Source: an uncultured Opitutia bacterium (GTDB lineage: Bacteria; Verrucomicrobiota; Verrucomicrobiia; Opitutales; Opitutaceae). Taken from it: a stretch of DNA of 64,000 nucleotides. A program made the position numbers and the translations under genes. Every line of letters starts with the position of its first letter. Positions within the stretch are counted from its first letter, which is position 1. Below, piece by piece: positions 42,121 through 61,932 of this stretch. Location of the stretch: NCBI GenBank assembly GCA_903859715.1, contig CAIONS010000056.1, positions 124,001 to 188,000 on the forward strand, given 5' to 3'. The notes under the pieces were generated by a model. The model searched no databases. It was not told the origin of the DNA and was given only the letters and a program-made list of their open reading frames with translations.

Positions 42121-44970
42121 TCAGTGGAGGTCAAAACCGGTGAGGTAGACCCAGTCCCAGGCGTTGTCCCCATTCGGGCCAACCGTAATCCTTAAACGCA
42201 GGCGGGTGCCGGCGGGCTGTGGTGGCAGCCGCGCATGCATCGTTTGATCTCCGCGATCCGCCGGTACAGTCAGGGGCTGCAGCCAACGTCGGAAGACAGT
42301 CTCGACCGAACCATCGGGCCGCAGGCATTCCACGATGAATTCCGCACCATCGGTCTTTGCTCCATGGGTGTAGCTGCCTTCCATGAGGCCACCGCTGAAG
42401 GTCAGTTCCCGGGCCGAAGCGGGCAGGTCGAACACGAGTGTGCTGGGTGCGATCACCATCAGGATATTCCTGGCCTGCTCAGGAATTACGCCGCAGCTGA
42501 CGGACTCGACGGACACTGGCAAAGTGACGAAACCGGGAAACTGGCTGTGGACGAAGGCTCCGCGCAAGAACCGCACCTGGGTGATAAATGACCAGCCCCA
42601 GGCGATGCCGCCGCCGGGCACCGGATCCGTGCGCACCACAATCCGGGAGCCGGGCATGTAAGTCGGCGGTAGGGGGGCCCGCAGCAGATGGTTGCCGCGG
42701 TCGGCGGGCACATAAAGGGGCTGAAGCGAGCGGCGCGTGATCAGTTGGGGCGATTGCCCGGGTTGATCGAGTTCCACGGTGAAGCTGACACCGTCCGTGC
42801 GACCTTGCAGGTAGGCATTTTCATTGATGCCGATCACAAGATCGAGTTCCCGCTCCGTGCCCTTCAGCGTGAAAGCGATACGGCTCGGGGACGGCACGTA
42901 TTCCACCCGGTTATCCTGGTACAGAGGCGTCGCGGGCTGCGGGGGATCAATGAAGTCGGGAGGGTCCTGGAAAACGGAGGGAGTATAGAAGGTGGGGAGT
43001 TTCCCGGTGACTGACACGGGCGGGCGGGGAACGGTGTAGAACGAGACGGTGAACTGATCGACGCGGAAGCACCCCGGATCGGGCGTGTGCAACCGGAGGC
43101 GTTGCACTTTCTTTTCGGAGTGCCCGGCCAGCAAGGCGATGAGATCGGAGGTGTTCTCGAGGGTCGGATTGAGCAGGGAGGGCACGGCCACGCTGCTCGC
43201 AATGATCCGCTGGTTGAGCGTCTGCGTGAGGCCGGGGCCCTGCAGGTCCATGAAAATCAGCGGCGGCTTGTAGGCGAAGGCGAGGGCATCGCCCTTCAGG
43301 TTCGAAGGCAGGGTGAATGAAAAGAGGAGCATTTCATCCGGCCCGACCTCGGGCACGGTGATCTCCTCGCCAAATTTGAATTTCCGGGTGGCGAGGAGCC
43401 GCGGAGCGAGGGGACTGGCCGGGCCGGGCCGGGCTTCAAGCAGCAGGGCGTCATCCTCCAGCAGGACAGGCCGGTACAAATTGAGCATGGTCAGCAGGCT
43501 CAGGGAGTCGTCGATCGCCACAAACCGGCTGTCGATCGATTGGAATTTCAGCAGCATGAAATCCGGCCGCGTGGCCGCATCGAGGAAGTGCCGGTAATTG
43601 AGCTCCTTGAAATGGCGGTTGTAGATGTGGTAGGTGCCGCAGCACATCGGCGTCGGCTGGTAATTGAAGTCATTCAGCAGCAGCAGGCCGATTTCATGGC
43701 CAAAGAAATCAATCGAGTGGCGGCCGATCGCCGCGCGAACCCGGGGCAGGTCATAGTTGGCCCGGCGGAGCGCGAGGGCCGTGTCGGACTGCGCCTTCAA
43801 ATCCGCCGCGGTAAAGACCGCATGGAAATTGCCGAGCAATTGAGGGCCCACATTCCGGAGTAATTGGGACAGGCGATCGGGCTGCAGCTCGCGGCTGCCG
43901 GCGAGACTGAATCCGGCGACGGCAAGAGGGAAAAAAATTACGATGCCCCGGGCCAGAAGGTGACGGCTGCGCAGGCCGATGATATGTTCCAGCATCGGCA
44001 CGGTGAAGGCGGCGACACAGGCGAAATCCATGAAGATATACATGTGTCCGTCAGACCGGACGTAACCGTGCTTCCACGAAACATAGGTGAACCCGGCGAG
44101 GAGAATGCAGCAGGCCAGCATGGCGGGATTCGCCCGCCGGTGCACGGCGGCCCATCCCAGCAGGGTCAGGAGACCCGTGGTCATGGCCGCCCCGATGACG
44201 AGGAGCCGTCCCGGTGTCTCGAGCGCCATCGCCTCATTGTAGCCTTGGGCGATATACTGGATGGCCCGCACATAAGCGGGCAAATGGAGGGGATTTTGTC
44301 CGGCGGCGAGCCACCAGCCGACGACGGCTACGAGGTAACTGGCGGCAATCCATCCGGCCCGACGCCAAGAGCGGATGAGCAGGGCCATGATCGCCACGCA
44401 GAGCAGACCGCCGAAGGTCTCAGCCAGCTGCGTGCCCTTGATCAGCGACAGGAAGGCAAGAAAGCCGGCCGCGGCGATACTCAGACGGAGCCGGTCGGAC
44501 CGCTGGTAATTCAGGATGAGGAACAGGCTGCACAGCAAAATGGAGACGGTGAAGAGATTGTCGCTGACACCCAGTTCCAGCAGCACAGCCGCCAGCCAGG
44601 CCCAGTGCCAGCCGCTACTGCGGGGCGAGGCGCAAAGAAACCAGAGCACGAGGGCGGAGAACCCGAGAGTGAAGAAAAACTGCAGGACAAGCTGGGTCCA
44701 AAACAACTCGCCGGCGTAATCCCAGCCGAACATGACGAAGCCATACGGGCCGGCGGTGGTGTTGACCTGGGAGCCAAACTGGTAGCCGTGGGCGGTGAAG
44801 TGCGCATACGTGGCGTGGATGGATGAATCGAGATCCGGCTCCATCACGTGCCACACCGGCGTCACGTAATAAAATCCCAGGACCAGCCACAGAATTCCGA
44901 GGCCCAGGCGGCGCCACGTGAAGAGAGGCTGGGCCGCCGGGGGGAGGATGCTGGAGGTGACTGGGTTCAT
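42121..44970 (-). CDS. Polytopic membrane protein with two C-terminal DRG/DWxYW-type beta modules
   Basis: 949 residues. About ten helices occupy the first 400 residues, with a first loop around PDLDSSIHATYAHFTAHGYQ and a conserved SWKHGYVRSDGHM, which its upstream neighbour also has (NWKHGFVRADGHV). The remaining 550 residues are soluble. Two copies of a beta module are visible: about 690-805 (DGVSFTVEL, LQPLYVPADRG, GWSF) and about 830-949 (DGAEFIVECL, LQPLTVPADRG, WDWVYLTGFDL). They should face the periplasm. It is a paralogue of the gene at 44995-47379, which has one copy of the module. A GT-C-type transferase with glycan-binding tail is the likeliest role; neither activity is shown. Confidence 0.82.
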   Translation of the reverse strand: MNPVTSSILPPAAQPLFTWRRLGLGILWLVLGFYYVTPVWHVMEPDLDSSIHATYAHFTAHGYQFGSQVNTTAGPYGFVMFGWDYAGELFWTQLVLQFFFTLGFSALVLWFLCASPRSSGWHWAWLAAVLLELGVSDNLFTVSILLCSLFLILNYQRSDRLRLSIAAAGFLAFLSLIKGTQLAETFGGLLCVAIMALLIRSWRRAGWIAASYLVAVVGWWLAAGQNPLHLPAYVRAIQYIAQGYNEAMALETPGRLLVIGAAMTTGLLTLLGWAAVHRRANPAMLACCILLAGFTYVSWKHGYVRSDGHMYIFMDFACVAAFTVPMLEHIIGLRSRHLLARGIVIFFPLAVAGFSLAGSRELQPDRLSQLLRNVGPQLLGNFHAVFTAADLKAQSDTALALRRANYDLPRVRAAIGRHSIDFFGHEIGLLLLNDFNYQPTPMCCGTYHIYNRHFKELNYRHFLDAATRPDFMLLKFQSIDSRFVAIDDSLSLLTMLNLYRPVLLEDDALLLEARPGPASPLAPRLLATRKFKFGEEITVPEVGPDEMLLFSFTLPSNLKGDALAFAYKPPLIFMDLQGPGLTQTLNQRIIASSVAVPSLLNPTLENTSDLIALLAGHSEKKVQRLRLHTPDPGCFRVDQFTVSFYTVPRPPVSVTGKLPTFYTPSVFQDPPDFIDPPQPATPLYQDNRVEYVPSPSRIAFTLKGTERELDLVIGINENAYLQGRTDGVSFTVELDQPGQSPQLITRRSLQPLYVPADRGNHLLRAPLPPTYMPGSRIVVRTDPVPGGGIAWGWSFITQVRFLRGAFVHSQFPGFVTLPVSVESVSCGVIPEQARNILMVIAPSTLVFDLPASARELTFSGGLMEGSYTHGAKTDGAEFIVECLRPDGSVETVFRRWLQPLTVPADRGDQTMHARLPPQPAGTRLRLRITVGPNGDNAWDWVYLTGFDLH

Positions 44971-44994
44971 GCAGCCAAGATCGCAGGGGCTTTT

Positions 44995-47379
44995 CTATTT
45001 GGAAAAAATCACGTCGGTCCAGTACGTCCAGCCGAAGGCGTTGTTATTGGAGGGTCCGGGAGTGGTGCGCATGATCAGCCGCCCGCTGCCGGGGGGCAGG
45101 GTCAGCTCGAACGACTGCTCGCCGCGGTCAGCGGAGACTGTGACCGGTTGCAGGAGGCGGTAAAACAGCCGCGAGGTTTTGCCCGCATCATCCATCCACT
45201 CGATGATGAATTCGGAGCCCCGGGTGGCATTGCCATCCTGGTAGGCGCGCGCGATGAAGCCGAAATTGCCCTTGAGGTGGTGAGTGGGGGGAACGACGAG
45301 AAATTCCAAAACACTGGGGGCGTGGACGAACAGGACCTCCTTGCCGGCCTCGGGGGTGATTTCGGCGGGGACGGCGCTGCTGGCGCTGATCGGCACCTGG
45401 TTGAAAACGCGGAACTTGATCTCCGGCGGCTTCTCCACCACCCGCATCGCGCGGGGGAAGGGAGGCAGCCGGTAGAACCGCACCTGCATGTTGGCGGAGA
45501 AATATTTCCGCTCGTCGGGTGGCATCAGGGCCGTGAGCCGGGCGATCCGGGGCCCCGGTTCACCTTCCTGATACTTCACGACGTTATAATTGCTGGTGAT
45601 GTGGGGATAGATGAGGAAACCGGCCTCAGCGCGGCCGCGGACCATGCGGAAGATGGCTTGATTGCCACCACCATCGGTCACGGCGAATTTAAGCTCCGGC
45701 GGCTTGTAGAAAAATGCGCGGACGCGGCCCAGGAAGGATGGTGTGATCTGAAACTCGCACCACACCGGGGTATCGCCCAAATCCGGAGTGATCACCGTCT
45801 CACCAAACCCGACTGTGTCCGTGCGAAGGAGGGTCTTCTGGTCCAGAGCGGGATTGGGCGCCTGGCGCTTCCAGACCAGGAATTCCTGGTCCTCCATCAG
45901 GAACACGTAATGGTGGTAAAGATAGCGGACAGCCAGGGCGTCCTCGATCGCGGGCAGGTGATCGTCGATGGTGTTGCGGTTAATCTTCTGGAGGACGAAT
46001 TCCGGAGCCCGGGCCGAGGCATAGAAATCGGCGTTGAGCTGCTCGAGATGCCGGTTGTAGGCCGCATAACCCTGCAGGGTCGGCCGGGCGCGGAAATTGA
46101 AGCCGTTGAAAAGAGCATAGGCCTGCTCATGGCCGAGGATATCGACCGGTTGGTCCCGGATCAGGGCCTTGATGCCGGTGAGGGAGTAAATTTTCGCCAG
46201 GCGAAGAAACTCAGCGCGGGCAGTCGTGGGAAAATCCGGGACACTGCCCAAGGCGTGGGAGTTTTCCACGAGCCGGCTGTTGAGCGTGCTGGGGGCCCAG
46301 ATGATCGTGGGCGGGGAATTTGCCCAGATCCCCGTCAGGCTGAAGATGGCGCAGGCGGCGAGGAGGAGACCCTTGACCCGGCGGAAGGCAGGTTCGTCCT
46401 GCAGCAGGACCGGGTACGCGCTGACCAAAAAAAGACTGATGAAGAAATGGGCGAGGACATGTCCGTCGGCGCGGACAAAACCATGCTTCCAGTTGAGAAA
46501 CGACGCGGCGGCCGCGATCAGCGTAAGAGCGGTAACGCGGGGCCGGTCCACCGCGCTGGCCAGGCTCACGCCATAATAGGCCGCAAGGGTGAACGCGGCG
46601 CCGAGACCGAGGAAAAGCATGGCGCCTGATTCATCCAGCCCCATGGCCTCGACATAGCCGTCACTCACGCTCAGGGAATTGAGCACATAGGCGGGCAAGT
46701 TGCCGAGGGACTGGCCCAAGGCGATCCAGCCGCCGAAGAAAGCGATGGCAAACGACGTGCCAATCAGGCCGGCGGTGGCGCGGCGGTGGCGCCAGAGTTG
46801 CCAGACGAGCACGCAGCCGATGGCGAAGCCCGCGAGAAGCAGATTCGTAAATTTAACGAGCGACATCACCCCGAGGGCGAAGGCGGTGAGGCCCGTCAGC
46901 CAGCGGTTCGCCAAGAATCGATCCCGGGTTAGCGCCAGGCTGAAGATCAGGATCATGATCATGTGGACGGCGTCCACATAGCTGACCCCAAACACGAAAA
47001 AATAGACGTAATAGACCGCCTTGCGCCAGGCAGTGAAACTCCGGCCGAGACCCCAGATGGCGAGGGCGAAGATAAAGTTCGCGCCGAGCTGCCACGCGAG
47101 TTGCGGACCGTAGAGTCCGCCGGAATTGGTCGGGGCGAGGACATGCCCGAGCGGGCCATACGTGAATACGATATCCTTGCCAAACTGCCAGCCGTGCTCG
47201 ATCGCGTAGCCCAAGGTCATCCGCCAGGACGGATCAAGGTCCACCGTGGGAGAGAGCGGCAGCCGGATCAGGGTGAGCCACAGGCCGACTACGAGCGCGG
47301 CATTGCCGAGAAAGCCGCGGATTTTGGCACCTAACTGGCCGGGGTGGGCTGAAAAATTGGCCGGTTCTGGGGTAGACAT
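44995..47379 (-). CDS. Polytopic membrane protein with C-terminal DRG/WTYW-type beta module
   Basis: 794 residues from the ATG at 47379. The first loop contains PTVDLDPSWRMTLGYAIEHG and FTYGPLGHVLAP; about ten helices follow, with NWKHGFVRADGHV shared with the downstream paralogue. The last 370 residues are soluble, ending in the module with GSEFIIEW, RLLQPVTVSADRGEQS and FGWTYWTDVIF. It lies 20 bases downstream of a giant glycosyltransferase gene and 24 bases upstream of its paralogue, so the three are probably one transcript. Function is inferred as envelope glycan transfer. Confidence 0.82.
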   Translation of the reverse strand: MSTPEPANFSAHPGQLGAKIRGFLGNAALVVGLWLTLIRLPLSPTVDLDPSWRMTLGYAIEHGWQFGKDIVFTYGPLGHVLAPTNSGGLYGPQLAWQLGANFIFALAIWGLGRSFTAWRKAVYYVYFFVFGVSYVDAVHMIMILIFSLALTRDRFLANRWLTGLTAFALGVMSLVKFTNLLLAGFAIGCVLVWQLWRHRRATAGLIGTSFAIAFFGGWIALGQSLGNLPAYVLNSLSVSDGYVEAMGLDESGAMLFLGLGAAFTLAAYYGVSLASAVDRPRVTALTLIAAAASFLNWKHGFVRADGHVLAHFFISLFLVSAYPVLLQDEPAFRRVKGLLLAACAIFSLTGIWANSPPTIIWAPSTLNSRLVENSHALGSVPDFPTTARAEFLRLAKIYSLTGIKALIRDQPVDILGHEQAYALFNGFNFRARPTLQGYAAYNRHLEQLNADFYASARAPEFVLQKINRNTIDDHLPAIEDALAVRYLYHHYVFLMEDQEFLVWKRQAPNPALDQKTLLRTDTVGFGETVITPDLGDTPVWCEFQITPSFLGRVRAFFYKPPELKFAVTDGGGNQAIFRMVRGRAEAGFLIYPHITSNYNVVKYQEGEPGPRIARLTALMPPDERKYFSANMQVRFYRLPPFPRAMRVVEKPPEIKFRVFNQVPISASSAVPAEITPEAGKEVLFVHAPSVLEFLVVPPTHHLKGNFGFIARAYQDGNATRGSEFIIEWMDDAGKTSRLFYRLLQPVTVSADRGEQSFELTLPPGSGRLIMRTTPGPSNNNAFGWTYWTDVIFSK

Positions 47380-47398
47380 AGGACGGAGCGAAGATGGG

Positions 47399-50300
47399 TC
47401 ACCAGCTTGATTCAAAGCGGTCGGGCCGGCCAGAAAGCTTGCGGGGGTCTTTCCGGGCGGTGTCCCGGTCGAAATCCAGCAGGGCTTCGCGGGCCAGGTC
47501 GGCGTGCTTGGGCAGCACCCGGTCAATGTCGTAGGCGCGCACCACCTTGGAGTAGCCCATGGGCGCGGTGGAGGTGCCGTTCCGCTGCTTGTCGAGGCAG
47601 GTCTTCATGATCTTGGCGAACTTCACGGGATTGCCGGGTTCGACCAGGTAGGCCTCGGCCTTGTCGGTGACCATTTCAGGGATGCCATGCACATCGGTAC
47701 TGACAATCGGCGTGCCAAAAGCCATCGCCTCCAGCAGCACCCGGGGAAAGGATTCCTCGTAGCTCGTGCAGACAAACATGTCGGCCAGCGCGAAGAAATC
47801 GTAGGCCTCGCGGGTCTCCGTGATGATGTCGACGTTGGCAATCCCGAGCATCTCCATGTCGCGGATCAGGGAATCCTGGTACTCGCCGGGCCGGCCGCCG
47901 ACGAAGAGGAACCGGTACTTTTCCCCGGCGGCATAATTCCGCATGAATGTGTCGATGGTGCGGATGAAGATATGCTGGCCCTTGCGTTCACAGACGGTGC
48001 CGATGTTGGCGATGATGATCTCGTCGTCCGCGTAGCCATACTTCCGTCGCATCGCGGCCTTGGAGTGTTGCTGCTTGAAGGCCTCGATGCGCGGGAGGTC
48101 GATCCAGGAGGAAACAAAGCGGTAGTTGTCGTAGTCGTTGAATTCCTCGAAATACGAGCGGCTGGCCCGGCACAGGAAGCAGACGCGCGTCGCCTGGCGG
48201 AAGGCGGCGCGGGCGACGTGTTGCATGTGCGGGTGCAGCGCCTTCGAGAAGAACCGCTTGATCGAGGCGCTTTCATGGATGTACAGCATCGACGGCTTGC
48301 CCGCGGCGGCGGCGAGATGCACGCCCCACCAGCAGGCCACGGTATTGCAGAGCACAACGTCGACGGCGGACAGATCGATCTTCCCGCGCATGACCTCGAG
48401 CTGCTCGGCGAACTCCTGGTCGGTGTGGGCACCGTGCAGCGGATGGCGGTCGATAAGGGTGATCTTGATCCCGAGGGCCTCGTAGGCACCGCGCAGCGGG
48501 CCGTCCTCAGCGGCGAGCAGGTCGAGGGTGAAGCCCTCGTGGCGGATCATGAAGGCGGCGTATTCGAGCAGGAACAGCGGCGCACCCTCGTAGTTAAGGT
48601 TATGGGTCACGAGCAACAGATGCAGGCGGCCGGCGCGGGCCGAATGCTCGTAGCGATAGGTGTCCAGCTTCAGCGTGGCGTGCTCGAGGTAGAATTGACG
48701 CGGGAAGTGCGGGTCGGTGAATTGCGCGTACTTCCGGACAAAATTGATGTGCTCGCTCTCGTAATAAGTCGTGCCGCGGGAGGCGCTGCCCCAGTGCCAC
48801 AATTCCGCCTGCGGAGTGTAGACGATGCGATGGCCGGCGGCCTGGAGCCGCAGACAGTAGTCCACGTCGTTGTAGGTGACGCTGAACTCCGTTTCGTTGA
48901 AGCCGCCGAATTCACGATAGAGGGAGGTGCGCGTCATCATGCACGCGCCGGTCACGGCGCTGACATCGCGGGCGAGCTTGTGGAGTGGGAAGAAATCGTC
49001 GGATTCCGCATCGAGGCCGGCCAGGGGCACATCAGCCAGGCCATGGTGCGGGCCGACGGTGATGCCGGCGTGGTTGAGATGGTTGTTGGGGAAGACGAGC
49101 TTGGCGCCGACCACCCCGACCTCGGCGATGGCGAACCAACCGGCCATGGCCTCGATCCAGCCCGGCCGCAGGGCGTCGACGTCGTTGTTGAGATGGAGGA
49201 TGAGCGGCGTGTCGATGTGCGGCAGCGCGGTGTTGACCAGCATCGAGTAGTTGAACGGCTTCATCGGGTCGACCGAGGGGCGGACGACGCGACAGTTGAA
49301 CTCGCGGCGCGTCGGCAGGAGGCGCAGCAGCCGGACGGTTTTTTCGTCGCGGGAAAAATCGTCCACGATGAGCAACTTGACGTGACGCCAGTCCACGGTG
49401 AGCAGCAGTGCTTCCAGGCAGCGCTCGAGGAGATCGCAACGGTCGCGCGTGGGAATGACGATGGTCACCGGATTGGCGGCGAGGAAAGCGCTGTCCCAGT
49501 AAAGCTGGTGATGCAGACTGCCGCGTTTCTGGGCGAAGGCCGGCTGAAAGGCACGGGCCGGCAACCGACGCCGGATGATGGCTGCCTCCAAGGCGTAGCG
49601 GGTATGTTCGACGAGGGCGCTGCCGGTTTCGTGGGCGGTTGCCGGACTGGCGGCGTGGTAGCAGATCGCATCGACATGTCGGACGTGTTCGGGCCGGATG
49701 TGCTCGGAGAGGCGCAGGGCGAGATCGTAGGCCAGCGCCGGAGCATAATCCGGCATGAACTCGCGGGATCGCATATAGAGCCGGCGATGCATTACCAGCA
49801 AATGGCCGGGCTGGCAGCCGGACAGGACGAGTGCGGGATTCCACCCGCATTTAAACTGGGGTTCGGAACGTACGCCCGCGTCGTCCATGACGTCCTCATC
49901 CGTGTAGATGAGCTCCGGTTCGGGCGCGAGCTGGATGGCTTCGGCGACACGCAGCAGCGCATCGGGGGAAAGGCGGCCATCGGCGTCGGGAAAGGCCAGC
50001 CAATCATCGCTCAGGGTATGGGCGGCGGCGTTCAAGGCGGCGGCGTGGTTGGCGTCGGGCGCGATGATCACACGCACGCGGGGGTCCGTGGCAGCGAGCC
50101 GGGTCAGCTCCCGGGCAAATTCCGGGGTCGCGTCCGAGGGTTGGAGCAGGCCGAGGTTCCAGCGGCCGTAGAGTTGGGCGCGAAGGGAAACCAGCAGGCG
50201 GGCGAGCCGGTCGGGACTAGCGGAGCGGGTGTCGACCACGAGCGCAAAACCGGGACCGGAGCCTGCGGTGAGCTGCGCGGCGGAGAGGACAAGAGCCTGG

Positions 50301-51400
50301 CTCAAACGCGGAGCGAGCGAATTGTGCGCGAGCCAGCTCGGGAACGGCAGGAGCTTTTGCCAACCGAACCAGGGCAATGGCTCCGGCGACTCGTGACGGT
50401 AGAGCTGGAGGACAGCGAGGCCGGTGCGCCAGAAGGAGAGTCCACCCGTCCGGACTTTCAAATGACGGCAGGCGCGCAGGACCGCGTGAATGAGATCGTG
50501 GTAGTTGGCGAACGAGTAGGGCGGGAGCGGCTGCTCCTTCTCGAGGGAAGTCCACGGATAAAGCCGCTTGGTGAAGGCGAGGACTTTTTCGCCATTCTCG
50601 AGCACGGCGAAAATCTTGAGGCAGACCGGTTCGGCCAGACGGGCGGGCAGGTCGACATTGCCGCGAAAGAGCGGGGTCCGGGCGCGAGGGTTGTCGGGAA
50701 ACAACGCGGCGACGTCGTCGCGCTCCAGCCCATGGATGAGATTGTTCTGGGTCCGGTTGTCAGTGGTCGCGATCAGCTGCCGGATCGGCTGCTCGGCATG
50801 GAAAATCCAACCGCCGATGTGCAGTTTGTCGTACTGCGTGTGTCCAACGACGTGCGGACCCTCGAACACGCCGTAGAGCGGGGGTACAGGCAGGGTTTCG
50901 AGCGGGATCACGGAACGTTCGCGAACGAGCTTGGCCGCATGGGCATCGCGGGTGGCCCGGGCGGTGAGCGAGGTCACCTTCAGCAACTCGAGCAGCATCG
51001 GCTTGATCAGGGCCGGATTGAGCGTCGGGTGGATCTTCCGGCAAGGGCCGGGACCTTTGCACGTGATGGGCACGCGCCAGAATTCCGCCCAGTCGTTGTT
51101 TTCATTGAGGATTTCCAGCCGGATGAGTTTGGCCCCGGGCCAGGGATCGAGTCGGAAGGAGAACCCGGCATGGACGCCCTGCGTCCAGTGCGCATAGGTG
51201 GCCTCGATATCGCGCCGCGGCAGGCCGAACAGGCCCATGATGGGCACCTCGTCGATGAAGGCCCGTACATCCGTATAGCGGAGGCCGTTTTTCGAGACGA
51301 ACCAGCCCGTGATCCAGAATTGCTCGGGCTTGAGGGTCCAATCCGTCGGCTGCTCAACGCTGAAGAGGTAGGATTCGTTCTCGTTGATATGGGCTTTCAT
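47399..51400 (-). CDS. Giant multidomain glycosyltransferase: beta - beta - GT2 (degenerate) - GT2 - GT4
   Basis: About 1,333 residues from the ATG at 51400, chosen because the paralogue at 55804-59769 starts at the matching place; ATG 51454 and GTG 51463 are alternatives. Residues about 10-110 are a beta module (FWITGWFVSKNGLRYTDVRA) and about 190-290 a second (HIGGWIFHAEQPIRQLIAT). The first GT2 domain (about 375-590) has lost typical residues: QPSDAT stands where the paralogue has ADDAS, and FPDADG where it has FLDHDD. The second GT2 (about 640-900) is intact (TIVIPTRDRCDLL, LIVDDFSRDE, LHLNNDVDAL, YNDVDYCLRLQ). The GT4 unit (about 925-1333) has VTHNLNYEGAPLFLLEYA and the EX7E site ESFPRVLLE. 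It probably assembles part of a long glycan in the cytoplasm. Confidence 0.88.
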   Translation of the reverse strand: MKAHINENESYLFSVEQPTDWTLKPEQFWITGWFVSKNGLRYTDVRAFIDEVPIMGLFGLPRRDIEATYAHWTQGVHAGFSFRLDPWPGAKLIRLEILNENNDWAEFWRVPITCKGPGPCRKIHPTLNPALIKPMLLELLKVTSLTARATRDAHAAKLVRERSVIPLETLPVPPLYGVFEGPHVVGHTQYDKLHIGGWIFHAEQPIRQLIATTDNRTQNNLIHGLERDDVAALFPDNPRARTPLFRGNVDLPARLAEPVCLKIFAVLENGEKVLAFTKRLYPWTSLEKEQPLPPYSFANYHDLIHAVLRACRHLKVRTGGLSFWRTGLAVLQLYRHESPEPLPWFGWQKLLPFPSWLAHNSLAPRLSQALVLSAAQLTAGSGPGFALVVDTRSASPDRLARLLVSLRAQLYGRWNLGLLQPSDATPEFARELTRLAATDPRVRVIIAPDANHAAALNAAAHTLSDDWLAFPDADGRLSPDALLRVAEAIQLAPEPELIYTDEDVMDDAGVRSEPQFKCGWNPALVLSGCQPGHLLVMHRRLYMRSREFMPDYAPALAYDLALRLSEHIRPEHVRHVDAICYHAASPATAHETGSALVEHTRYALEAAIIRRRLPARAFQPAFAQKRGSLHHQLYWDSAFLAANPVTIVIPTRDRCDLLERCLEALLLTVDWRHVKLLIVDDFSRDEKTVRLLRLLPTRREFNCRVVRPSVDPMKPFNYSMLVNTALPHIDTPLILHLNNDVDALRPGWIEAMAGWFAIAEVGVVGAKLVFPNNHLNHAGITVGPHHGLADVPLAGLDAESDDFFPLHKLARDVSAVTGACMMTRTSLYREFGGFNETEFSVTYNDVDYCLRLQAAGHRIVYTPQAELWHWGSASRGTTYYESEHINFVRKYAQFTDPHFPRQFYLEHATLKLDTYRYEHSARAGRLHLLLVTHNLNYEGAPLFLLEYAAFMIRHEGFTLDLLAAEDGPLRGAYEALGIKITLIDRHPLHGAHTDQEFAEQLEVMRGKIDLSAVDVVLCNTVACWWGVHLAAAAGKPSMLYIHESASIKRFFSKALHPHMQHVARAAFRQATRVCFLCRASRSYFEEFNDYDNYRFVSSWIDLPRIEAFKQQHSKAAMRRKYGYADDEIIIANIGTVCERKGQHIFIRTIDTFMRNYAAGEKYRFLFVGGRPGEYQDSLIRDMEMLGIANVDIITETREAYDFFALADMFVCTSYEESFPRVLLEAMAFGTPIVSTDVHGIPEMVTDKAEAYLVEPGNPVKFAKIMKTCLDKQRNGTSTAPMGYSKVVRAYDIDRVLPKHADLAREALLDFDRDTARKDPRKLSGRPDRFESSW

Positions 51401-51502
51401 CCGCTGGAAGAACCATGAAAGCCGTCCCGTCACCGCCGGCAAAGGAATTTTCATCCAAACCACTGGGGCTCTCCGATTGGGACGGCGGCCCGATGGAACG
51501 GA

Positions 51503-53629
51503 TCACTTGATGTCGATCCGTCCCCAATAGGCCCAATCGAAGGCGTTGTCATCCTTATGCCCGGCGCCGGCCTGGAAGATCAGCTCGGCGCCTTCCGGCA
51601 GGACAAAATTCAGGTTGAAGGCATGGACGCCGCGATCGGCCGGGACGTTCTGGGGATCAAGGAAGGATTCAAACAACTGCCGGTCGGCATGCAACGGCCG
51701 GCGCACGAGCACGGCGAAGCTTACGCCGTCCGAGTTGGGCGGTTCCTTGCGATGATAGGCGCCTTCCATCATGCCATATTGGGCATGGAGGCGGTGTTGC
51801 CCGGGCGGAATCCGGAAGACCAGTTCGGACGGGGCGTGGGCGTTGAACCTGTTTACGCCGTCAACCAGCGTTGAAAACGTGATACCCCAGAGGTTCCGGT
51901 TGAACACGGGAACCGGGGTCATGGCGGCGAAGGGGGATTTGTCGGCTAGGTTGGCGACTGCAACTTCCTTTAATCCCAAGCGGCTGGCGGTAAGCGACTC
52001 CGGAGGAAAAAGTTTGAGTTGATGGTAGGCGCCCGCGGCGTTGTCCCGCAAGTAGGTCGCGACATGATCGTAGAGCTCCTCGTTAAAATAGAAGACAAAA
52101 TCGTCGCTGTAGGTGAACGCGGGACCTCGCAGAATACCCAGCGTGCGTTCAGCCCGGTCAAGGATCGAGTGATAGGCCAGGGACCGCCGGCTAATGATAA
52201 GCGCTCCGACGCGCTGGCCTTTCAGTGCGGCAAATGCCTTGGTGAGATAAGCTTCATCTCCCTCGCGGGCGGTGGTAATCATCAGGGCGCGCCGACCGGC
52301 ATAGTACGGGATAATGGAAGACCAATCGTCGCCCACGACGATGATCACGTCCTCCGGGTCGGTAAGCAGGCGGACCAACTGGGTGTGTTCGCCGCCGGCC
52401 ACGGTGAGTTGCTGCAGGGGCAGGAAATCCCGCTGGTAATCCCGCAACTGAATGAACCCCACAACGACCGCCAGCAGCCATGGGATCCAATTCATCCACC
52501 AAAAACGCGGCGCGTATTCAAAAAATGCCCCTATGGCTACGCCAGTCGCCAGGATGAGCAGGACGCCATTGGCGTAGAAGTAGTATTGATGTAAATAATA
52601 AAGGTTCGAGAACAGCAGTTGGCTCGCGAAGAACAGGCCGAGCAACCCCGCTATGGCGCCGCGCCAGCGACCGCCGAAGACGAGCCACGCGACGATGGTA
52701 CCCGCCGTAAAAAAAGAAGGCTGCAGCGCATCGCGCCAATGACTGGTGACGGTATGCCAAAAATCCGCAGAGAGGCGCTGAGTCCAGGTGCCGAAGATGA
52801 ATTGATCAGCCGAGCGCGAATTGAGAAAATCGGCGCTGGGGTTGAGCGCTTTCACCTGGTCGCTGAATTTGACCCAGCAGGCCCCGGCCAGCAATGGTGT
52901 CAGGGCGCAGCCCAGAATGCCGTGACCTGCCGTGCTCCAGAAAGGACGCCAGGACTGACCAAGCCGCGGCCGTGACTGCCACAGGCACATGCCACCCCAG
53001 AGTGCCGCGGGCAAGAGGTAGACCATGAAGGTGGTGACCTTGATGGTGGCGGCGGCGATACCGAGCAGATTGGTGGCAACGAGCCAGCCAGTATGCCGGG
53101 TCGTCATGGTCTCGATGAACGCAGCCAGAAACCAAAGTGCAAACATCAGCGCCATCGATTCGATCAGGAAGGCGCGAGTGTAGAGGATGTAGAGCGGGCA
53201 GGCCAGCACCAGTCCAAGCGCTAGCAGTCGGCGGGCCGGCGGCAGTCCGAGGCGCCCTAATAGCAGATAAAGCGCGGCCAACATGAGGTAAAAGCAGCCG
53301 AGAGTAACGGCGCGCCCCGCCTGCACCAGTGGCACGCCGGTCGTGTCACTGAGCCCCACGGCTGTCCATTGGTAGAGTGGAAACTCCATGGGGATGGACC
53401 ACGGTTTTCCGAGTACGGGCGTGGGATAGGCCATGGAAAAATCATGGTCTCGTTGGATGAATTGGGCTGAGATGGCAGTTTGCGCCTGTCGGAACTCCTG
53501 GCCGGCCAGTCGCTCCAATTTCCATCCGACGGTGACACAATACAGATGAATCAGGAACAGGGTGGTGAACCATCCCATGCTCACGAGCCATTGCAGGCGT
53601 GAAGTTGCAGGAACGGAAGATGCCATCAT
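51503..53629 (-). CDS. Polytopic membrane protein (FRQAQTA family) with C-terminal DRG/DWAYW beta module
   Basis: 708 residues from the ATG at 53629 (a second ATG follows directly and a TTG is 12 bases earlier). The first loop after helix 1 has GQEFRQAQTAISAQFI, TPVLGKPWSIPMEFPLYQW, a pattern shared with the genes at 53704 and 59869. About eleven helices follow, then a soluble region of about 300 residues that ends with the module: DGVSFAVLV, FLDPQNVPADRG and DNAFDWAYWGRIDI. The EFRQ loop sits where GT-C enzymes have their catalytic acid. It is 62 bases downstream of its paralogue. Expected location: inner membrane with module in the periplasm. Confidence 0.82.
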   Translation of the reverse strand: MMASSVPATSRLQWLVSMGWFTTLFLIHLYCVTVGWKLERLAGQEFRQAQTAISAQFIQRDHDFSMAYPTPVLGKPWSIPMEFPLYQWTAVGLSDTTGVPLVQAGRAVTLGCFYLMLAALYLLLGRLGLPPARRLLALGLVLACPLYILYTRAFLIESMALMFALWFLAAFIETMTTRHTGWLVATNLLGIAAATIKVTTFMVYLLPAALWGGMCLWQSRPRLGQSWRPFWSTAGHGILGCALTPLLAGACWVKFSDQVKALNPSADFLNSRSADQFIFGTWTQRLSADFWHTVTSHWRDALQPSFFTAGTIVAWLVFGGRWRGAIAGLLGLFFASQLLFSNLYYLHQYYFYANGVLLILATGVAIGAFFEYAPRFWWMNWIPWLLAVVVGFIQLRDYQRDFLPLQQLTVAGGEHTQLVRLLTDPEDVIIVVGDDWSSIIPYYAGRRALMITTAREGDEAYLTKAFAALKGQRVGALIISRRSLAYHSILDRAERTLGILRGPAFTYSDDFVFYFNEELYDHVATYLRDNAAGAYHQLKLFPPESLTASRLGLKEVAVANLADKSPFAAMTPVPVFNRNLWGITFSTLVDGVNRFNAHAPSELVFRIPPGQHRLHAQYGMMEGAYHRKEPPNSDGVSFAVLVRRPLHADRQLFESFLDPQNVPADRGVHAFNLNFVLPEGAELIFQAGAGHKDDNAFDWAYWGRIDIK

Positions 53630-53703
53630 CGAGGGGAGCAAGACACCCGCAGATTCATACTCAAGTCATCCTGCGTGCCATGGAATTTTTTCGCTGTGCC
53701 GGA

Positions 53704-55788
53704 TTACTTCACGACGATCCGGGCCCAATAAGCCCAGTCGTAGGAATAGCCGCGGTTTGGGCGGGTGGAGAAGATGAGAGTCTCGCCGGGCAGTGACTGA
53801 TAAGGGATGATTTCATGCTGGCGTCCGCGATCCTTGGGACGGTGCGCAGGATCGAGGAGCCGGTGGTAAATTTCCCGTTTGGATCCGCTCGACGTCTCAC
53901 CGGTGACGCTGAACACCACTCCTTCGGATTTGTCTCCGGCCCGTTCGTACGCTGAGGGATGAAGGCCGAAATCCCACATGATGACGGTGGCCTTTGTTGG
54001 TGCATGCAACCAGAGGTCGCTGTCGGGATGGGCGGAGAGCACCATGTCTCCCTCCGACCACACGCGGTTGAAACCATAACCGAACCGGGCTTGGAAGGGG
54101 ACGGGCGAAATTGATTTGAACGCCGTGCGGGCCACGCCCGCCGTAATGGCCGTTGGCGGATTGATCAGGGTCGCGATGGGTTCGTCCTGACGGACGGTGA
54201 CGTGTTCGTAGGGATTGCTGTTTCGGAGATAGGTCAGCACGTAGTTGCGGTAGAAACGGCTGAAATAGACGTCCCCGGTAGGGTGGGAAAAAGTGGGAAT
54301 GCCGTCGATGTGGAACTTGGCCATGGCGCGCTCAAGCAGTGCGTGATTAGTACGCTGTTCGCCCATCAGGATGACGGCGGCGACATCCTCGTCGTCGAGA
54401 TCGGTGAAAGCCCGGTCGAGGTAGGCCGGATCATTTTCGAGGCCATTGCGGATCATGAGAGCCTTGTGCTGCGAATAATAGGGTACCATGGCGGCCCAGT
54501 CGGCTCCCGCGATGACGAAGACCGAGCCCTTGGGCGTGATGTCCAGCAGAGCGCCCGTGAGCCCGGTGCCGCCTTGGGAAACCAGGAGCTGCTCGGGCCG
54601 GTAGCCTTGCCAGTAAGTGGTGACCAGGACGGCGAAGGGCATGGCAACCAAGGGCCAGCGGACCCAGCCAGGCAGGCCGGAATCCAAGAGCCCGCCGAGC
54701 ACAAAACCGAATGCGGCCATGAGGAAGACGGTGCAGGCGTAGAAATAATAATCCTGATAAGCGTAGGCGAGGGGGAAGAGCACCTGCGCCAGCAGGAACA
54801 GGCCGGTGAGCGCGAGGACCCACCACCGGATGGAAGACCGGCCGGCCAGTCCGGCCACCAGGATGAGGCCAATGATCCAAGGCGCCATGATGGCCTCGTG
54901 CCAGCGGGTCAGCAGGACCCGCCACGTGGTCGGGGAAAAGTGAGCGCCCAAGTCGAACATGCCATAGTTCCCGGCCGCGAGGCTTTTGGACGTGAAGATG
55001 GCGCCGGCGGGATGGCTGGCCTTGATGGTGTCGGTAAAGCCGATCCACCAGTAGAGGAGGACCAGCGAAATCACCACGCCACCCAAGCCGCACAGGGCGG
55101 TGCGCAGCATCGCGAGCCAGCCGCGGCCGGACCGCCAGTCGCGCCAGAGGAGCCAGACGACGTAGGCGGCACCCGGCAGCAGCCAGAGCGCATACGTGGT
55201 GTTCTTGATCAGTGCGGCGCAAATGCCGATCACGGTCGTGGCGGCAAACCAGGACCAGCGTCGCTCATCCATCAGGCGCACGAAGCAGGCCAGAAACCAG
55301 GTGCAGCACATCAGCTCCATCGAATCGATGAGGAAGGCCCGCGAGTAGAAGATGTAGACCGGGCAGGCGAGGACCAGTGCGAGGGTGAGAAGCCGGCGCG
55401 GGCGGGGGACTCCCAGCCGCCCGAGCAGCAGGAAGAGGGCCGGCAGCGTCAGGTAGAAGCACGCGAGGGTGATACCACGGGCCGCCTTGAAATGGGGCAG
55501 GCCGGTGGCCCGGCTCAGCGCGACCACGCTCCACTCATACAGCGGCACCTCGAGCGGCAGTGCGACCCAGGGCTTGCCCAGGACCGGGGTTTCGTAGCGC
55601 AGCGAGAAGTTGTCCTGTTGATCGATGTAATAGGTGACGATCGCCGTCTGGGCCTGCCGGAATTCATGGCCGGGCATGAAGGCTGAGTTCCAATTGGCGG
55701 TGGTGAGATAAAAATGGGCGATCAGGGCGGCGCAGAAGATGCCGACTAGAGGCCAGGTTTCGCGCCGCGAGGGAGTAAGTTCGGCCAT
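53704..55788 (-). CDS. Polytopic membrane protein (FRQAQTA family) with C-terminal DRG/DWAYW beta module
   Basis: 694 residues. The first loop has GHEFRQAQTAIVTYYI and TPVLGKPWVALPLEVPLYEW; helices follow up to about residue 400. The soluble part contains VFVIAGADWAAMVPYYSQHK, also found in altered form in the two paralogues, and the terminal module with EGVVFSV, RLLDPAHRPKDRG and YSYDWAYWARIVV. Spacing of 15 bases from the giant glycosyltransferase upstream suggests one transcript. The three paralogues differ enough that they are likely to use different donors or acceptors rather than being simple duplicates. Confidence 0.82.
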   Translation of the reverse strand: MAELTPSRRETWPLVGIFCAALIAHFYLTTANWNSAFMPGHEFRQAQTAIVTYYIDQQDNFSLRYETPVLGKPWVALPLEVPLYEWSVVALSRATGLPHFKAARGITLACFYLTLPALFLLLGRLGVPRPRRLLTLALVLACPVYIFYSRAFLIDSMELMCCTWFLACFVRLMDERRWSWFAATTVIGICAALIKNTTYALWLLPGAAYVVWLLWRDWRSGRGWLAMLRTALCGLGGVVISLVLLYWWIGFTDTIKASHPAGAIFTSKSLAAGNYGMFDLGAHFSPTTWRVLLTRWHEAIMAPWIIGLILVAGLAGRSSIRWWVLALTGLFLLAQVLFPLAYAYQDYYFYACTVFLMAAFGFVLGGLLDSGLPGWVRWPLVAMPFAVLVTTYWQGYRPEQLLVSQGGTGLTGALLDITPKGSVFVIAGADWAAMVPYYSQHKALMIRNGLENDPAYLDRAFTDLDDEDVAAVILMGEQRTNHALLERAMAKFHIDGIPTFSHPTGDVYFSRFYRNYVLTYLRNSNPYEHVTVRQDEPIATLINPPTAITAGVARTAFKSISPVPFQARFGYGFNRVWSEGDMVLSAHPDSDLWLHAPTKATVIMWDFGLHPSAYERAGDKSEGVVFSVTGETSSGSKREIYHRLLDPAHRPKDRGRQHEIIPYQSLPGETLIFSTRPNRGYSYDWAYWARIVVK

Positions 55789-59868: not shown

Positions 59869-61932
59869 TCAATCGATCTTGATGCTGCGCCAGTAGGACC
59901 AGTCGGAATTTGCGTTGTTGGCCGGTCCTGGCAGGGTGCGAAAAAGGATCGAGCCCTGCAACGGGGCCACGGTCTCGATGGAGAAAGTCTGCAATCCGCG
60001 GTCCTGCTTGATGGTGCCGGGCTGCATCCAGCGGTAAAAGAGCCGTTGGCGAAGACCGTTGGCCTGTGCGGAAACGACCTCGAACTCGACGCCGTCGGAG
60101 TGATCATATGCCGCTGGATTTATGCCGAATTCGGCCGTGATGTGGCGGGCGCCGGGCGGGGGAACGATTTCGATCTCAGTGGTCGCATGCGCGTTCAGCA
60201 CCCAATGACCTTCGATCATCTCGGCCGAGATTCCGTAGGGCACGGTCATCTTGACCGGCTGCGGGCTGACGCCGGCGAACATGCTGCGATCTTTCAACTG
60301 GTCTATCCAGTATAGCACGCGGGGCTGTTCACCCGGCTTGGAGAGCAGGCCTTGGTAAAGCAGCATGCCGTTCAGGGAGAAATCCTTTAGTGCCTTTAAT
60401 GCTTCGGGCACCACATCCTTGCGTACGTGGATGGTGTATTCGCCGGTCTGGAGAAATGGATTTTCATCCATGTTCAGATCCTTCAGCCAGTGCACGTAGG
60501 ATTCCGGACCAGGTTGCCCGAGGCGTGAGAGAATGACGGCGGCCACCCGGGCCGATCCCAGACGGTGGAGCGTCTCGCGAATTGCAGCGTCATCATGGAT
60601 ATAGCGATCAGGTACCATGAGGGCGCGCCGGTTGCCGTAATAGGCCATGATGGGACTCCAGTTCATGCCGAAGCCGACGAGCACGTCATCGGGCTTAGTA
60701 ATCCGTCCAATGGCCAGGGCGAGGTCCGGTGGGTTGATGGCCGCCTTGGTCTGGGGCTCGTAATATTTTTGGAGATAGCCCGAGAATTGCGCGACCAGGA
60801 CGACCACGACCACTCCGAGCCGGCCAAAGAGCGGGATCGACGGGCTTTCCATCAGCCGCTGGAGCGGCAGGGCGAGGAGCAGGAGGAAAAAGATCCCGCT
60901 GGAGTACAGGTAGTAGTCGTGGACAAAGTAGAGATTCGCAAACGCCAGCGGGCCGGCCATCGCGACCAGCAGGACGACGGCAAACAGCCGCCCACGGCCG
61001 CGGAGAAAGAGCAGCAGCAGCACCGCGAGCAGGAACAGGGAGAAGCTGGGAAAGAGCGCCCGTTCAAGTTGAGCGCCGAATTGCTGCCAGAAGCCGGGAT
61101 CGAAGCGCTGGGAAAGCGGGCCGTAGGTCCAGTCATGCAGTTCCGACGAGACCAGCATCGTGCCAAAGACATTTTTCCGCTTGATCGCGTCGGTGTAGTT
61201 GACCCACCACGCGGCGGTGAGGACACCGGGCGCAGCTGCCACGGCGGCACGGCCGAGGAGGGGGCGCCACTCCGCGCGGCGCGACCAAAGGGCCGCAAGC
61301 GTGAAGGCTGCCGCCGGGGCCAGGAACACCGCATAGGTCGTGACCTTGGTCAGTCCCGTGGCGATGCCGACCAGTGCCGCCGCGGCGAGGGCGGACCGGC
61401 GGCTCGACACGAATCCGGCATGGAAAAAATTCAGGAACCACAGGCCCAGGCAAAATGCAGTGGATTCGATCAGGAATGTGCGGGAGAAAAATTGATAAAC
61501 CGGGCAGGTCAGGATCAGGGCGAGGAAGAGCCAGCGATGAGAGGGAGGGACTTTCAGCCGGCGGAGAAGCAACCACGCGGCCGGCAGGGCGGCGTAAAAA
61601 AAGAAGAGGGAGACGGCACGCCCGGCGCGATCCAGCGGGAGCCCGGTGGCTTTGCAGAGTCCGGCGACGGCCGCTTGGTAAGTGGGAAATTCAAGCGGGA
61701 TCGCCCAAGGCGCACCCATGATCGGTGTCTCATAGTCGAGCCGGAAACCGTCGCGGATCAGCCAATAAGTGGAGAGGGCCGTCTGGGTCTGACGAAACGG
61801 ATGGGTATCGAGGATTGCGTTCTTCCAGCCGGCGCGGACGAACCACACACTGACGACCAGGACAATCAGGAAGATGGCGAGGCTGGCGACCCGCTCGGGA
61901 GACCGGGTTGGGCTGGGATGCGGTTCGGTCAT
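59869..61932 (-). CDS. Polytopic membrane protein (FRQTQTA family) with C-terminal DRG/DWSYW beta module
   Basis: 687 residues, third member of the family at 51503 and 53704. The first loop reads DTHPFRQTQTALSTYW then TPIMGAPWAIPLEFPTYQA, so the glutamate before FRQ in the other two is a proline here. Helices run to about residue 390; the soluble part includes VGFGMNWSPIMAYYGNRRAL and the terminal module (DGVEFEVVSA, RWMQPGTIKQDRG, SDWSYWRSIKI). It is the first gene of the last - strand glycan run, so its promoter should lie in the 178-base gap before it. Inferred role as for its paralogues. Confidence 0.82.
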   Translation of the reverse strand: MTEPHPSPTRSPERVASLAIFLIVLVVSVWFVRAGWKNAILDTHPFRQTQTALSTYWLIRDGFRLDYETPIMGAPWAIPLEFPTYQAAVAGLCKATGLPLDRAGRAVSLFFFYAALPAAWLLLRRLKVPPSHRWLFLALILTCPVYQFFSRTFLIESTAFCLGLWFLNFFHAGFVSSRRSALAAAALVGIATGLTKVTTYAVFLAPAAAFTLAALWSRRAEWRPLLGRAAVAAAPGVLTAAWWVNYTDAIKRKNVFGTMLVSSELHDWTYGPLSQRFDPGFWQQFGAQLERALFPSFSLFLLAVLLLLFLRGRGRLFAVVLLVAMAGPLAFANLYFVHDYYLYSSGIFFLLLLALPLQRLMESPSIPLFGRLGVVVVVLVAQFSGYLQKYYEPQTKAAINPPDLALAIGRITKPDDVLVGFGMNWSPIMAYYGNRRALMVPDRYIHDDAAIRETLHRLGSARVAAVILSRLGQPGPESYVHWLKDLNMDENPFLQTGEYTIHVRKDVVPEALKALKDFSLNGMLLYQGLLSKPGEQPRVLYWIDQLKDRSMFAGVSPQPVKMTVPYGISAEMIEGHWVLNAHATTEIEIVPPPGARHITAEFGINPAAYDHSDGVEFEVVSAQANGLRQRLFYRWMQPGTIKQDRGLQTFSIETVAPLQGSILFRTLPGPANNANSDWSYWRSIKID

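What the first reader, a model, noticed from the sequence alone, without database searches (positions are those of the whole stretch)
42121..61932. Shared C-terminal 'DRG ... DWxYW' beta module on five membrane proteins
The genes at 42121, 44995, 51503, 53704 and 59869 all end in the same pattern: dG(V/A)xF, then L(Q/D)P followed by ADRG/KDRG/QDRG, then a proline-rich turn and a final (D/G)W(A/S/T/V)Y(W/L). The spacing is similar in all. This looks like a carbohydrate-binding type beta-sandwich (NPCBM-like in general pattern), placed where it would face the periplasm. It marks a protein set that has been assembled by domain shuffling.
Basis: partly seen in the sequence, partly recalled or inferred. 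Interest (0 to 1): 0.6.

Follow-up and report, generated by a model that had tools for sequence, protein, structure and literature searches.

The report
Shared sugar-binding-type tag on glycosyltransferases
A bacterium attaches the same lectin-like domain to the end of many different membrane enzymes that seem to build its surface sugars, probably as a common handle for holding the sugar chain; it is a divergent, unnamed cousin of a known sugar-binding domain.

Summary
All five genes end in one homologous module of about 125 residues; 42121 has a second, internal copy, and two genes outside the window carry it. Pfam and NCBIfam do not name it. AlphaFold models of the 51503 module (pLDDT 90.7) and of full-length 44995 (83.3) both have CBM51 as best VIA match in PDB (Z about 13). 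Profile comparison links it to NPCBM/PF08305 (E 3e-10; score 60, shuffled controls at most 19). It is a divergent relative, not a PF08305 member: the 51503 module scores below the curated cut-off, and a Pro...Asp-Arg-Gly loop is new. It occurs in 65 of 200 sampled genomes of the family (Opitutaceae), and in all 91 distinct carriers examined it sits at the C-terminus: on five clusters of membrane enzymes (GT-C nature supported for three) and on one SGNH-like protein whose 52%-identical homologue lacks it. The locus also has GT2, GtrA and Wzm/Wzt-like genes. Best reading: a periplasmic glycan-binding module on enzymes that decorate an exported polysaccharide, as others showed for EmbC and GT136. 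Binding is inferred; the recognition loops do not track the genome, which argues against tuning to each strain's glycan. Domain shuffling is limited.

The parts
42124..42498 (-). terminal module of gene 42121-44970 (949 aa, N-terminal cluster N1)
   Evidence: profile hit C56:166124-166498, E 9.5e-49 (window = C56 minus 124000)
   Evidence: profile hit C56:166568-166942, E 2.1e-42
45004..45369 (-). terminal module of gene 44995 (likely start 47379, 794 aa)
   Evidence: E 1.0e-46; full-length model, residues 657-794 match CBM51 with Z 13.5
51506..51868 (-). terminal module of gene 51503-53641 (cluster N0)
   Evidence: E 2.7e-47; model pLDDT 90.7, matches CBM51 with Z 13.2
53707..54060 (-). terminal module of gene 53704-55788 (cluster N0)
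   Evidence: E 5.6e-43
59875..60228 (-). terminal module of gene 59869-61932 (cluster N0)
   Evidence: E 1.9e-44
42121..44970 (-). membrane enzyme carrying two modules, probably GT-C
   Evidence: N-terminal similarity cluster with 44995
44995..47379 (-). membrane enzyme, GT-C by weak fold matches, with an extra beta region (residues ~510-640) before the module
   Evidence: Foldseek hits of the full model: AftA, EmbA/B, yeast OST, ArnT, at TM-scores of 0.2-0.36; secondary structure
51503..53641 (-). PMT-like membrane enzyme
   Evidence: clusters with 53704 and 59869
53704..55788 (-). PMT-family membrane enzyme
   Evidence: PF02366 24.7 bits, above the cut-off of 22.7
59869..61932 (-). PMT-like membrane enzyme
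   Evidence: clusters with 51503 and 53704
47399..51463 (-). GT2/GT4 fusion between the module-bearing genes, no module
   Evidence: Pfam; no module hit
40867..42036 (-). GT2 with C-terminal hydrophobic segments, candidate polyprenyl-phosphate-sugar synthase (donor)
   Evidence: PF00535; hydrophobic segments; donor role inferred
11233..13247 (-). two genes of the same locus: nucleotidyltransferase and dehydratase (RmlA/RmlB-like)
   Evidence: PF00483, PF16363; Rml names are inference

Best explanation
The C-terminal pattern is a divergent NPCBM/CBM51-type beta-sandwich (supported by profile and predicted fold), fused to the end of several families of membrane enzymes that are most likely GT-C glycosyltransferases (53704 by Pfam, 44995 by weak fold matches, the rest inferred). 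In such enzymes the C-terminal soluble part faces the periplasm (inferred from GT-C relatives). Most likely mechanism: the polysaccharide is built in the cytoplasm by the GT2/GT4 enzymes and exported by a Wzm/Wzt-like transporter; GT2 enzymes load sugars on polyprenyl phosphate, a GtrA-like protein flips them, and the GT-C enzymes add them to the exported chain. The module holds that chain near the active site through the loops at one end of the sandwich, where the conserved His, Thr-Asp-Gly, Pro...Asp-Arg-Gly and Asp-Trp residues lie. Because the same loops are kept in different enzymes and across genomes, the ligand should be a common element of these glycans (a core, backbone or terminal sugar), not the strain-specific side chain (inferred).
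For: Fold: best VIA matches of the module are CBM51 entries, Z 13.2, 118 residues, rmsd 2.4-2.6, repeated for another protein, Z 13.5. Profile: modules against 29 NPCBM domains, hhalign 96.8%, E 2.9e-10, score 60.3; 60 column-shuffled controls at most 19.0, reversed 17.2. Bridge: locus L070 is hit by the module profile at residues 502-592 and by Pfam NPCBM above its cut-off at 516-592. Pfam scan of 35 modules: NPCBM hits 9, best E 7e-4; the next family hits 2. Host enzymes: PF02366, PMT_2, Foldseek AftA, EmbA/B, OST, ArnT. Shared site: mean conservation in loops b3-b4, b5-b6, b7-b8, b9-b10 is 2.85, 1.89, 2.15, 2.12 bits against 1.37, 1.46, 1.75, 1.26, 1.43 in b1-b2, b2-b3, b4-b5, b6-b7, b8-b9; terminal modules keep His26 in 85 of 91 and Trp127 in 87 of 91, internal ones in 12 of 24 each. 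A carrier that is not GT-C-like: an SGNH-like protein beside an MBOAT gene and an acyltransferase-3 gene. Locus: GtrA domain, ABC transporter with a sub-threshold Wzt_C hit and ABC2 permease. Precedent: the EmbC CBM and the GT136 ORF12 CBM bind the acceptor (PMC3044687 abstract; PMC11127046 passages).
Against: No binding data. Modules of different enzymes in one genome are no more alike than expected (all columns 141 of 300 shuffles as high, face loops 41 of 300), so there is no sign of tuning to each genome's glycan. The conserved acidic residues could hold a metal. Six other proteins of the window with five or more hydrophobic segments lack the module, so not every such enzyme needs it. The GT-C fold matches of 44995 have low TM-scores, and no GT-C chain is among the 50 VIA rows shown. 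Carriers are not always in one locus: in G126 and G415 copies are also scattered over the chromosome. The ORF12 CBM was dispensable for activity under the conditions tested (PMC11127046). Topology was not measured; the crude hydrophobicity scan gave no clear charge bias and, at its lax cut-off, weak segments inside the module region of 42121 and 44995.
Confidence: 0.58

Rival explanations
1. The module is a protein docking domain: it brings the different membrane enzymes and the SGNH-like protein onto one assembly, for instance the exporter, so that they work on the same chain.
For: The same conserved end in different enzyme clusters and no genome-specific change of the loops fit a constant protein partner at least as well as a glycan. 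Copies often sit together: the 8 modules found in G154 lie within 41 kb and the 6 found in G418 within 36 kb of single-contig genomes (positions).
Against: The nearest folds are CBM51 sugar binders, and the closest sequence relatives outside the family lie in proteins of which several have glycoside-hydrolase-like domains. Copies are scattered in G126 and G415. No candidate partner was found.
Confidence: 0.2
2. The module is a structural cap of the enzyme, perhaps with a metal site made by the conserved Asp residues, and binds no ligand of its own.
For: Conserved Asp and Gly in the loops. One module per enzyme is the commonest arrangement.
Against: It is separable: the SGNH-like homologue in G652 (52% identity over about 395 residues) ends without it. 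It also occurs on a different kind of protein and in tandem, up to three copies.
Confidence: 0.17
3. Neutral spread: a locally copied domain that hitchhikes with recombining polysaccharide genes and has no strong role.
For: Large copy-number variation, 1 to 17 found per positive genome; some exchange among enzymes.
Against: Loop residues are strongly conserved over 91 terminal modules whose mean pairwise identity is only 26-35% by class of pair.
Confidence: 0.05

Closest known systems
NPCBM / CBM51 (Pfam PF08305)
   Same: Same beta-sandwich by predicted fold, Z about 13; homologous by profile, E 2.9e-10; the His-Ala-x-Ser stretch and the C-terminal Asp...Trp stretch are aligned with each other.
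   Different: The 51503 module is below the Pfam cut-off (13.8-14.1 against 23.9 bits). A Pro...Asp-Arg-Gly loop pattern is present in 75 of 91 terminal modules but 0 of 29 NPCBM. Found on membrane enzymes, whereas the CBM51 entries come from glycoside hydrolases and a peptidase.
EmbC C-terminal lectin-like CBM of mycobacteria
   Same: CBM-type domain at the C-terminus of a GT-C enzyme, with another subdomain before it as in 44995 (PMC3044687 abstract).
   Different: One enzyme family there; here one module type on five enzyme clusters and an SGNH-like protein. Sequence homology of the CBMs was not tested.
GT136 ORF12 of Citrobacter youngae (three-component post-polymerisation decoration)
   Same: GT-C enzyme with a C-terminal CBM that binds the exported O-polysaccharide; lipid-linked donor, flippase, ABC-exported chain (PMC11127046 passages). 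Likely counterparts of these parts lie on contig C56.
   Different: The CBM there is described as immunoglobulin-like; the flippase there is MATE-type, here GtrA-like. Its donor synthase makes a polyprenyl phosphoribose; here the candidates are GT2 proteins.
'HPPW' domains of distant members of the phylum
   Same: Nearest relatives outside the family: hhalign 99.3%, E 1e-20 over 109 columns.
   Different: On large proteins, 4 of the 8 scanned with DUF6259 or DUF5696 above the cut-off; 1 of 10 matches the Pro...Asp-Arg-Gly pattern.

Membership tests
NPCBM/CBM51 (PF08305) | beta-sandwich fold of CBM51 | tested here: met
   VIA Z 13.2 (118 aligned, rmsd 2.4-2.6) and 13.5 (123 aligned, rmsd 2.3) against CBM51 chains, on predicted models of two proteins
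NPCBM/CBM51 (PF08305) | profile homology | tested here: met
   hhalign E 2.9e-10, score 60.3 against shuffled maximum 19.0
NPCBM/CBM51 (PF08305) | score above Pfam's curated cut-off | tested here: not met
   51503 module 13.8-14.1 bits against 23.9; the five full proteins gave no NPCBM hit at E <= 1. Best of 35 modules E 7e-4, its bits not shown
NPCBM/CBM51 (PF08305) | binding of galactose-type glycans | not testable with these tools
   CBM51 specificity from PMC3267712 (passages); no ligand data here
PMT / GT39-type membrane enzyme | Pfam PMT profile above cut-off | tested here: met
   53704: PF02366 24.7 against 22.7; carrier L120:13898-17260: PMT_2 42.5 against 26.1. Not met or no hit for 42121, 44995, 51503 and 59869
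GT-C glycosyltransferase (44995) | polytopic GT-C fold | tested here: inconclusive
   Foldseek AftA E 7e-4, EmbA/B 8e-4, OST 4e-3, ArnT 6e-3, probability 0.96-1.00 but TM-scores 0.2-0.36; no GT-C chain in the 50 VIA rows shown, which cover residues 651-794
GT-C glycosyltransferase (44995) | acidic residue in the first extracytoplasmic loop | tested here: met
   Asp49 after helix 13-37, at least 90% conserved in 16 rows; catalytic role inferred
GT-C glycosyltransferase (host enzymes) | lipid-linked sugar donor | not testable with these tools
   GT2 and GtrA genes on the same contig only
EmbC-type C-terminal CBM | acceptor glycan binding through a conserved Trp | not testable with these tools
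   Trp127 kept in 87 of 91 terminal modules; equivalence to the EmbC Trp not established
GT136 three-component system | sequence family of ORF12 | not tested
   no GT136 profile was used

The most novel reading that the evidence does not exclude
A common 'address tag' for envelope glycan finishing: one lectin-like module, attached to the C-terminus of many different periplasm-facing enzymes (five clusters of membrane enzymes and an SGNH-like protein of an acylation gene set), recognises a shared element of the exported polysaccharide, so that a whole set of decorators is directed to the same chain.
Probability: 0.35. Interest if true: 0.65.

Novelty: new variant of a known kind. Interest (0 to 1): 0.5.

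Why it matters
CBMs are known on a few GT-C enzymes (Emb, AftD, GT136), described enzyme by enzyme in the papers seen here. In this case one module type is used across several kinds of enzyme, often many in one locus, in a third of the sampled genomes of a bacterial family (65 of 200). It offers an annotation handle for otherwise unnamed membrane enzymes, may mark which of them act on the exported chain, and gives a soluble domain of about 130 residues in which acceptor recognition could be tested directly.

Tried and rejected
Named-domain search: Pfam and NCBIfam on the five proteins gave nothing on the module at E <= 1. PDB sequence profiles A1 and A5 found no relative: the hits, E 0.28-0.77, were designed proteins and a short stretch of a fucolectin. 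A first, shallow NPCBM alignment gave only a weak, collinear match (E 0.006, 6%), as did the HPPW domains against it (4.5%); a deeper NPCBM set of 29 domains replaced it, and both results are reported. Foldseek alone was ambiguous: for the module its best hits include Fab-complex, Cry-toxin and TNF-family chains at E 2e-4 to 1e-3, and for 44995 VIP3 toxin chains rank 2-4 at TM-scores near 0.1; VIA re-ranking of the same candidates put CBM51 first. Rejected: chance. Not supported: co-adaptation of modules within a genome. Literature: 'NPCBM + glycosyltransferase' (4 papers) and 'Opitutaceae + glycosyltransferase + exopolysaccharide' (0 papers) showed no report of this module in their listings; of the four, only NPCBM passages of PMC8195603 were read. 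That, and the absence of a Pfam or NCBIfam name, is the basis for calling it undescribed.

Rows and counts: the list of 92 carriers holds one G415 gene twice (L132:17832-20000, cut at the locus end, and L133:3-2204), so 91 are distinct; likewise the 87 long carriers are 86 distinct. Several carriers are cut by locus ends. Modules under about 100 residues were left out. The NPCBM set used 29 of the 45 loci fetched for that family; A5 used 10 of the 15 weak-hit loci L056-L070. Copy numbers from the genome search are lower bounds, as only 11 or 20 candidates per genome were scored.
Full report
OBSERVATION. The five genes end as described, and the pattern is a real homologous module. The single protein 51503 searched against its own genome finds the modules of 42121 and 44995 at E 4e-12 and 9e-11, although the rest of those proteins is not aligned, and two further genes on the same contig. 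With a profile of 8 modules the genome (3.18 Mb, 71 contigs) holds 8 copies at E <= 1e-40; the next matches are at E 0.15 and 0.43. Six copies are in the window, because 42121 has an internal second copy; the others are at C56:209109-209471 and C56:363341-363694 (the window is C56:124001-188000).

NAMED FAMILIES. Pfam and NCBIfam name nothing on the module at E <= 1 in the full proteins. Scanned alone, 9 of 35 modules reach NPCBM/PF08305 weakly (best E 7e-4), against 2 for the next family. The 51503 module scores 13.8-14.1 bits against the cut-off of 23.9.

FOLD. An AlphaFold model of the 51503 module (35 sequences) has pLDDT 90.7 and pTM 0.85. In VIA-align, which re-ranks Foldseek's candidates, the first six rows, and ten of the first eleven, are titled as CBM51 (GH95, GH98 and ZmpB proteins); the exception at rank 7 is 8pvs, an Akkermansia enzyme. 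Z is 13.2-11.8 and rmsd 2.4-2.8. Full-length 44995 (16 sequences, pLDDT 83.3, pTM 0.74) gives the same answer for residues 657-794 (Z 13.5, 123 aligned, rmsd 2.3). Foldseek on that model also lists GT-C structures: AftA 8if8 (E 7e-4), EmbA-EmbB 7bvc (8e-4), yeast OST 8agb (4e-3), ArnT 5f15 (6e-3), with TM-scores of only 0.2-0.36; the 50 VIA rows shown hold none. Foldseek on the module alone was less clear. Folds of the other three proteins were not predicted.

HOMOLOGY. Weak profile hits in distant members of the phylum (E 4e-9 to 1e-3) fall in large proteins. They carry an 'HPPW...SDGV.F...PGP...D..W' domain; 4 of 8 scanned have DUF6259 or DUF5696 above the cut-off. hhalign joins 31 modules to 10 of these at 99.3%, E 1e-20. 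In L070 such a domain (residues 502-592) overlaps a Pfam NPCBM hit above the cut-off (516-592); the other 7 proteins scanned have no NPCBM hit at E <= 0.1. Directly, 115 modules against 29 NPCBM domains give 96.8%, E 2.9e-10, score 60.3 over 110 columns; 60 column-shuffled NPCBM profiles score at most 19.0 and the reversed one 17.2. A first comparison with a shallow NPCBM alignment was weak (E 0.006). The alignment pairs NPCBM's His-Ala-x-Ser with the module's His-Ala-Pro-Ser and both C-terminal Asp...Trp stretches. New in the module is a Pro...Asp-Arg-Gly loop: its pattern is in 75 of 91 terminal modules, 16 of 24 internal, 1 of 10 HPPW-type, 0 of 29 NPCBM. So it is a divergent branch of the NPCBM/CBM51 superfamily, not a PF08305 member as curated. 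The own genome has no canonical NPCBM at E <= 0.001.

DISTRIBUTION. In a sample of the own family the module is in 65 of 200 genomes and 18 of 49 genera, 1 to 17 copies found in each (E <= 1e-8). That the family is Opitutaceae follows from record titles: L086 lies on a contig of the same length as one of G080, and is titled Opitutaceae. In the order it is in 6 of 177 genomes, five of the own family and G028 of another (E 2e-19); in the phylum in 37 of 387 at E <= 1e-3, of which 14 in the own family and one other (G362, E 2e-20) are strong. A scan of named genomes with a three-sequence query found 13 loci, all labelled Opitutaceae, Opitutae, Lacunisphaera or Verrucomicrobia.

CARRIERS. In 92 carrier frames of the window and loci L086-L138 (91 distinct) the module stands at the C-terminus with at most 11 residues after it, and up to three modules stand in tandem. 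At the cut-off of that call no hydrophobic segment lies beyond the start of the module; a laxer scan puts weak segments in the module region of 42121 and 44995. The 87 with at least 350 residues before the module (86 distinct) fall in N-terminal similarity clusters of 28, 24, 19, 11, 3, 1 and 1. The first contains 51503, 53704 and 59869; the second 42121 and 44995. GT-C nature is supported for three clusters: the first (PF02366), the second (fold, weakly) and the third (PMT_2 42.5 bits). One member of the cluster of 11 resembles an arabinofuranosyltransferase model weakly (NF041481, E 2e-4); the cluster of 3 had no Pfam or NCBIfam hit in the member scanned and is called an enzyme only by its many hydrophobic segments. 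The odd carrier is L107:5109-6956 (C56:209109-210956). I read it as SGNH/AlgJ-like from its sequence; Pfam and NCBIfam gave no family. It lies beside an MBOAT gene and near an acyltransferase-3 gene. Its homologue in G652, 52% identical over about 395 residues and beside a gene that looks like MBOAT (not scanned), stops without the module. The module is therefore separable from its enzyme.

EVOLUTION. On a tree of 86 terminal modules (quick method, few columns) the enzyme-cluster label needs 12 changes, the least possible being 6 and the shuffled mean 48.1. Modules are mostly inherited with their enzyme. Exceptions include the L107 module inside the PMT-type modules (support 99) and mixing of tandem-module proteins of clusters 2 and 3. 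Shuffling has happened but is not the rule.

SITE (numbering of the 136-residue model). Mean conservation is 2.85, 1.89, 2.15 and 2.12 bits in loops b3-b4, b5-b6, b7-b8 and b9-b10, and 1.37, 1.46, 1.75, 1.26 and 1.43 in b1-b2, b2-b3, b4-b5, b6-b7 and b8-b9. Terminal modules keep His26 (85 of 91), Gly63 (90), Pro87 (91), Asp93 (80), Arg94 (76), Asp126 (80) and Trp127 (87); internal modules keep His26 and Trp127 in 12 of 24 each, but Arg94 in 18 of 24. Against simple tuning to each strain's glycan: modules of different clusters in one genome are no more alike than expected, 0.263 against 0.263 for all columns (141 of 300 shuffles as high) and 0.394 against 0.389 for the face loops (41 of 300). 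If the site binds a sugar, it is one common to these loci.

LOCUS AND MECHANISM. The window encodes a nucleotidyltransferase, dehydratases or epimerases, a methyltransferase and GT2/GT4 fusion proteins, and three single GT2 proteins were confirmed. On the same contig lie a GtrA domain (C56:196962-197303), an ABC transporter with a sub-threshold Wzt_C hit (22.6 bits against cut-off 30.4) and an ABC2 permease. This resembles the parts list of a system in which sugars on polyprenyl phosphate are flipped and added by GT-C enzymes to a chain exported by an ABC transporter, as shown for Citrobacter youngae O1, where the C-terminal CBM of the GT-C enzyme binds the polysaccharide, though the enzyme still worked without it (PMC11127046, passages). 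In EmbC the C-terminal CBM binds acceptor analogues, and Trp changes lower binding and activity (PMC3044687, abstract); AftD also has predicted CBMs (PMC6034362, passages). PF08305 equals CBM51, with galactose and blood-group ligands (PMC3267712, passages). In G154 the 8 modules found lie within 41 kb and in G418 the 6 found within 36 kb, but in G126 and G415 copies are also scattered. By this analogy the module most likely holds the exported chain for the enzyme. Supported here: homology, fold, position, conservation, locus content. Inferred: periplasmic location, glycan ligand, donor type, post-export action.

VERDICT. A real, unnamed, lineage-expanded relative of NPCBM/CBM51 on probable biosynthetic enzymes: a new variant of a known kind. 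The breadth of its use, several enzyme clusters plus an acylation-set protein, is the unusual part.

Noticed in passing
window 42568-42942 (-): Gene 42121 has a second, internal module whose conserved residues have partly drifted (Pro at the position of His26).
   Followed up: yes
window 44995-47379 (-), protein residues about 510-640: A further beta-rich region lies between the membrane part and the terminal module of 44995; VIA alignments to tandem CBM51 entries extend into it, but at rmsd 16-18.
   Followed up: partly
window 24238-25251, 47399-51463 and 55804-59769 (-): The methyltransferase and the GT2/GT4-type proteins start with a different, apparently repeated N-terminal stretch ('ITGWFVSKNG..DVRA' type) that was not identified; 55804 was named by its look only.
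   Followed up: no
L118, G494:C6 from 56744: A module-bearing frame in G494 contains an in-frame TAG: a broken gene or an assembly error.
   Followed up: no
window 32848-37175 (-): A large ORF with an STN-like start follows a FecR-like ORF; both named from sequence appearance only.
   Followed up: no
window 62111-63682 (-): NHL-repeat-like protein, named from sequence appearance, in a stretch of lower GC (0.574) and changed GC skew at the window end.
   Followed up: no
L056-L070: Distant members of the phylum carry an 'HPPW' beta domain in large proteins; in 7 of 8 such proteins scanned Pfam gave no NPCBM hit at E <= 0.1.
   Followed up: partly
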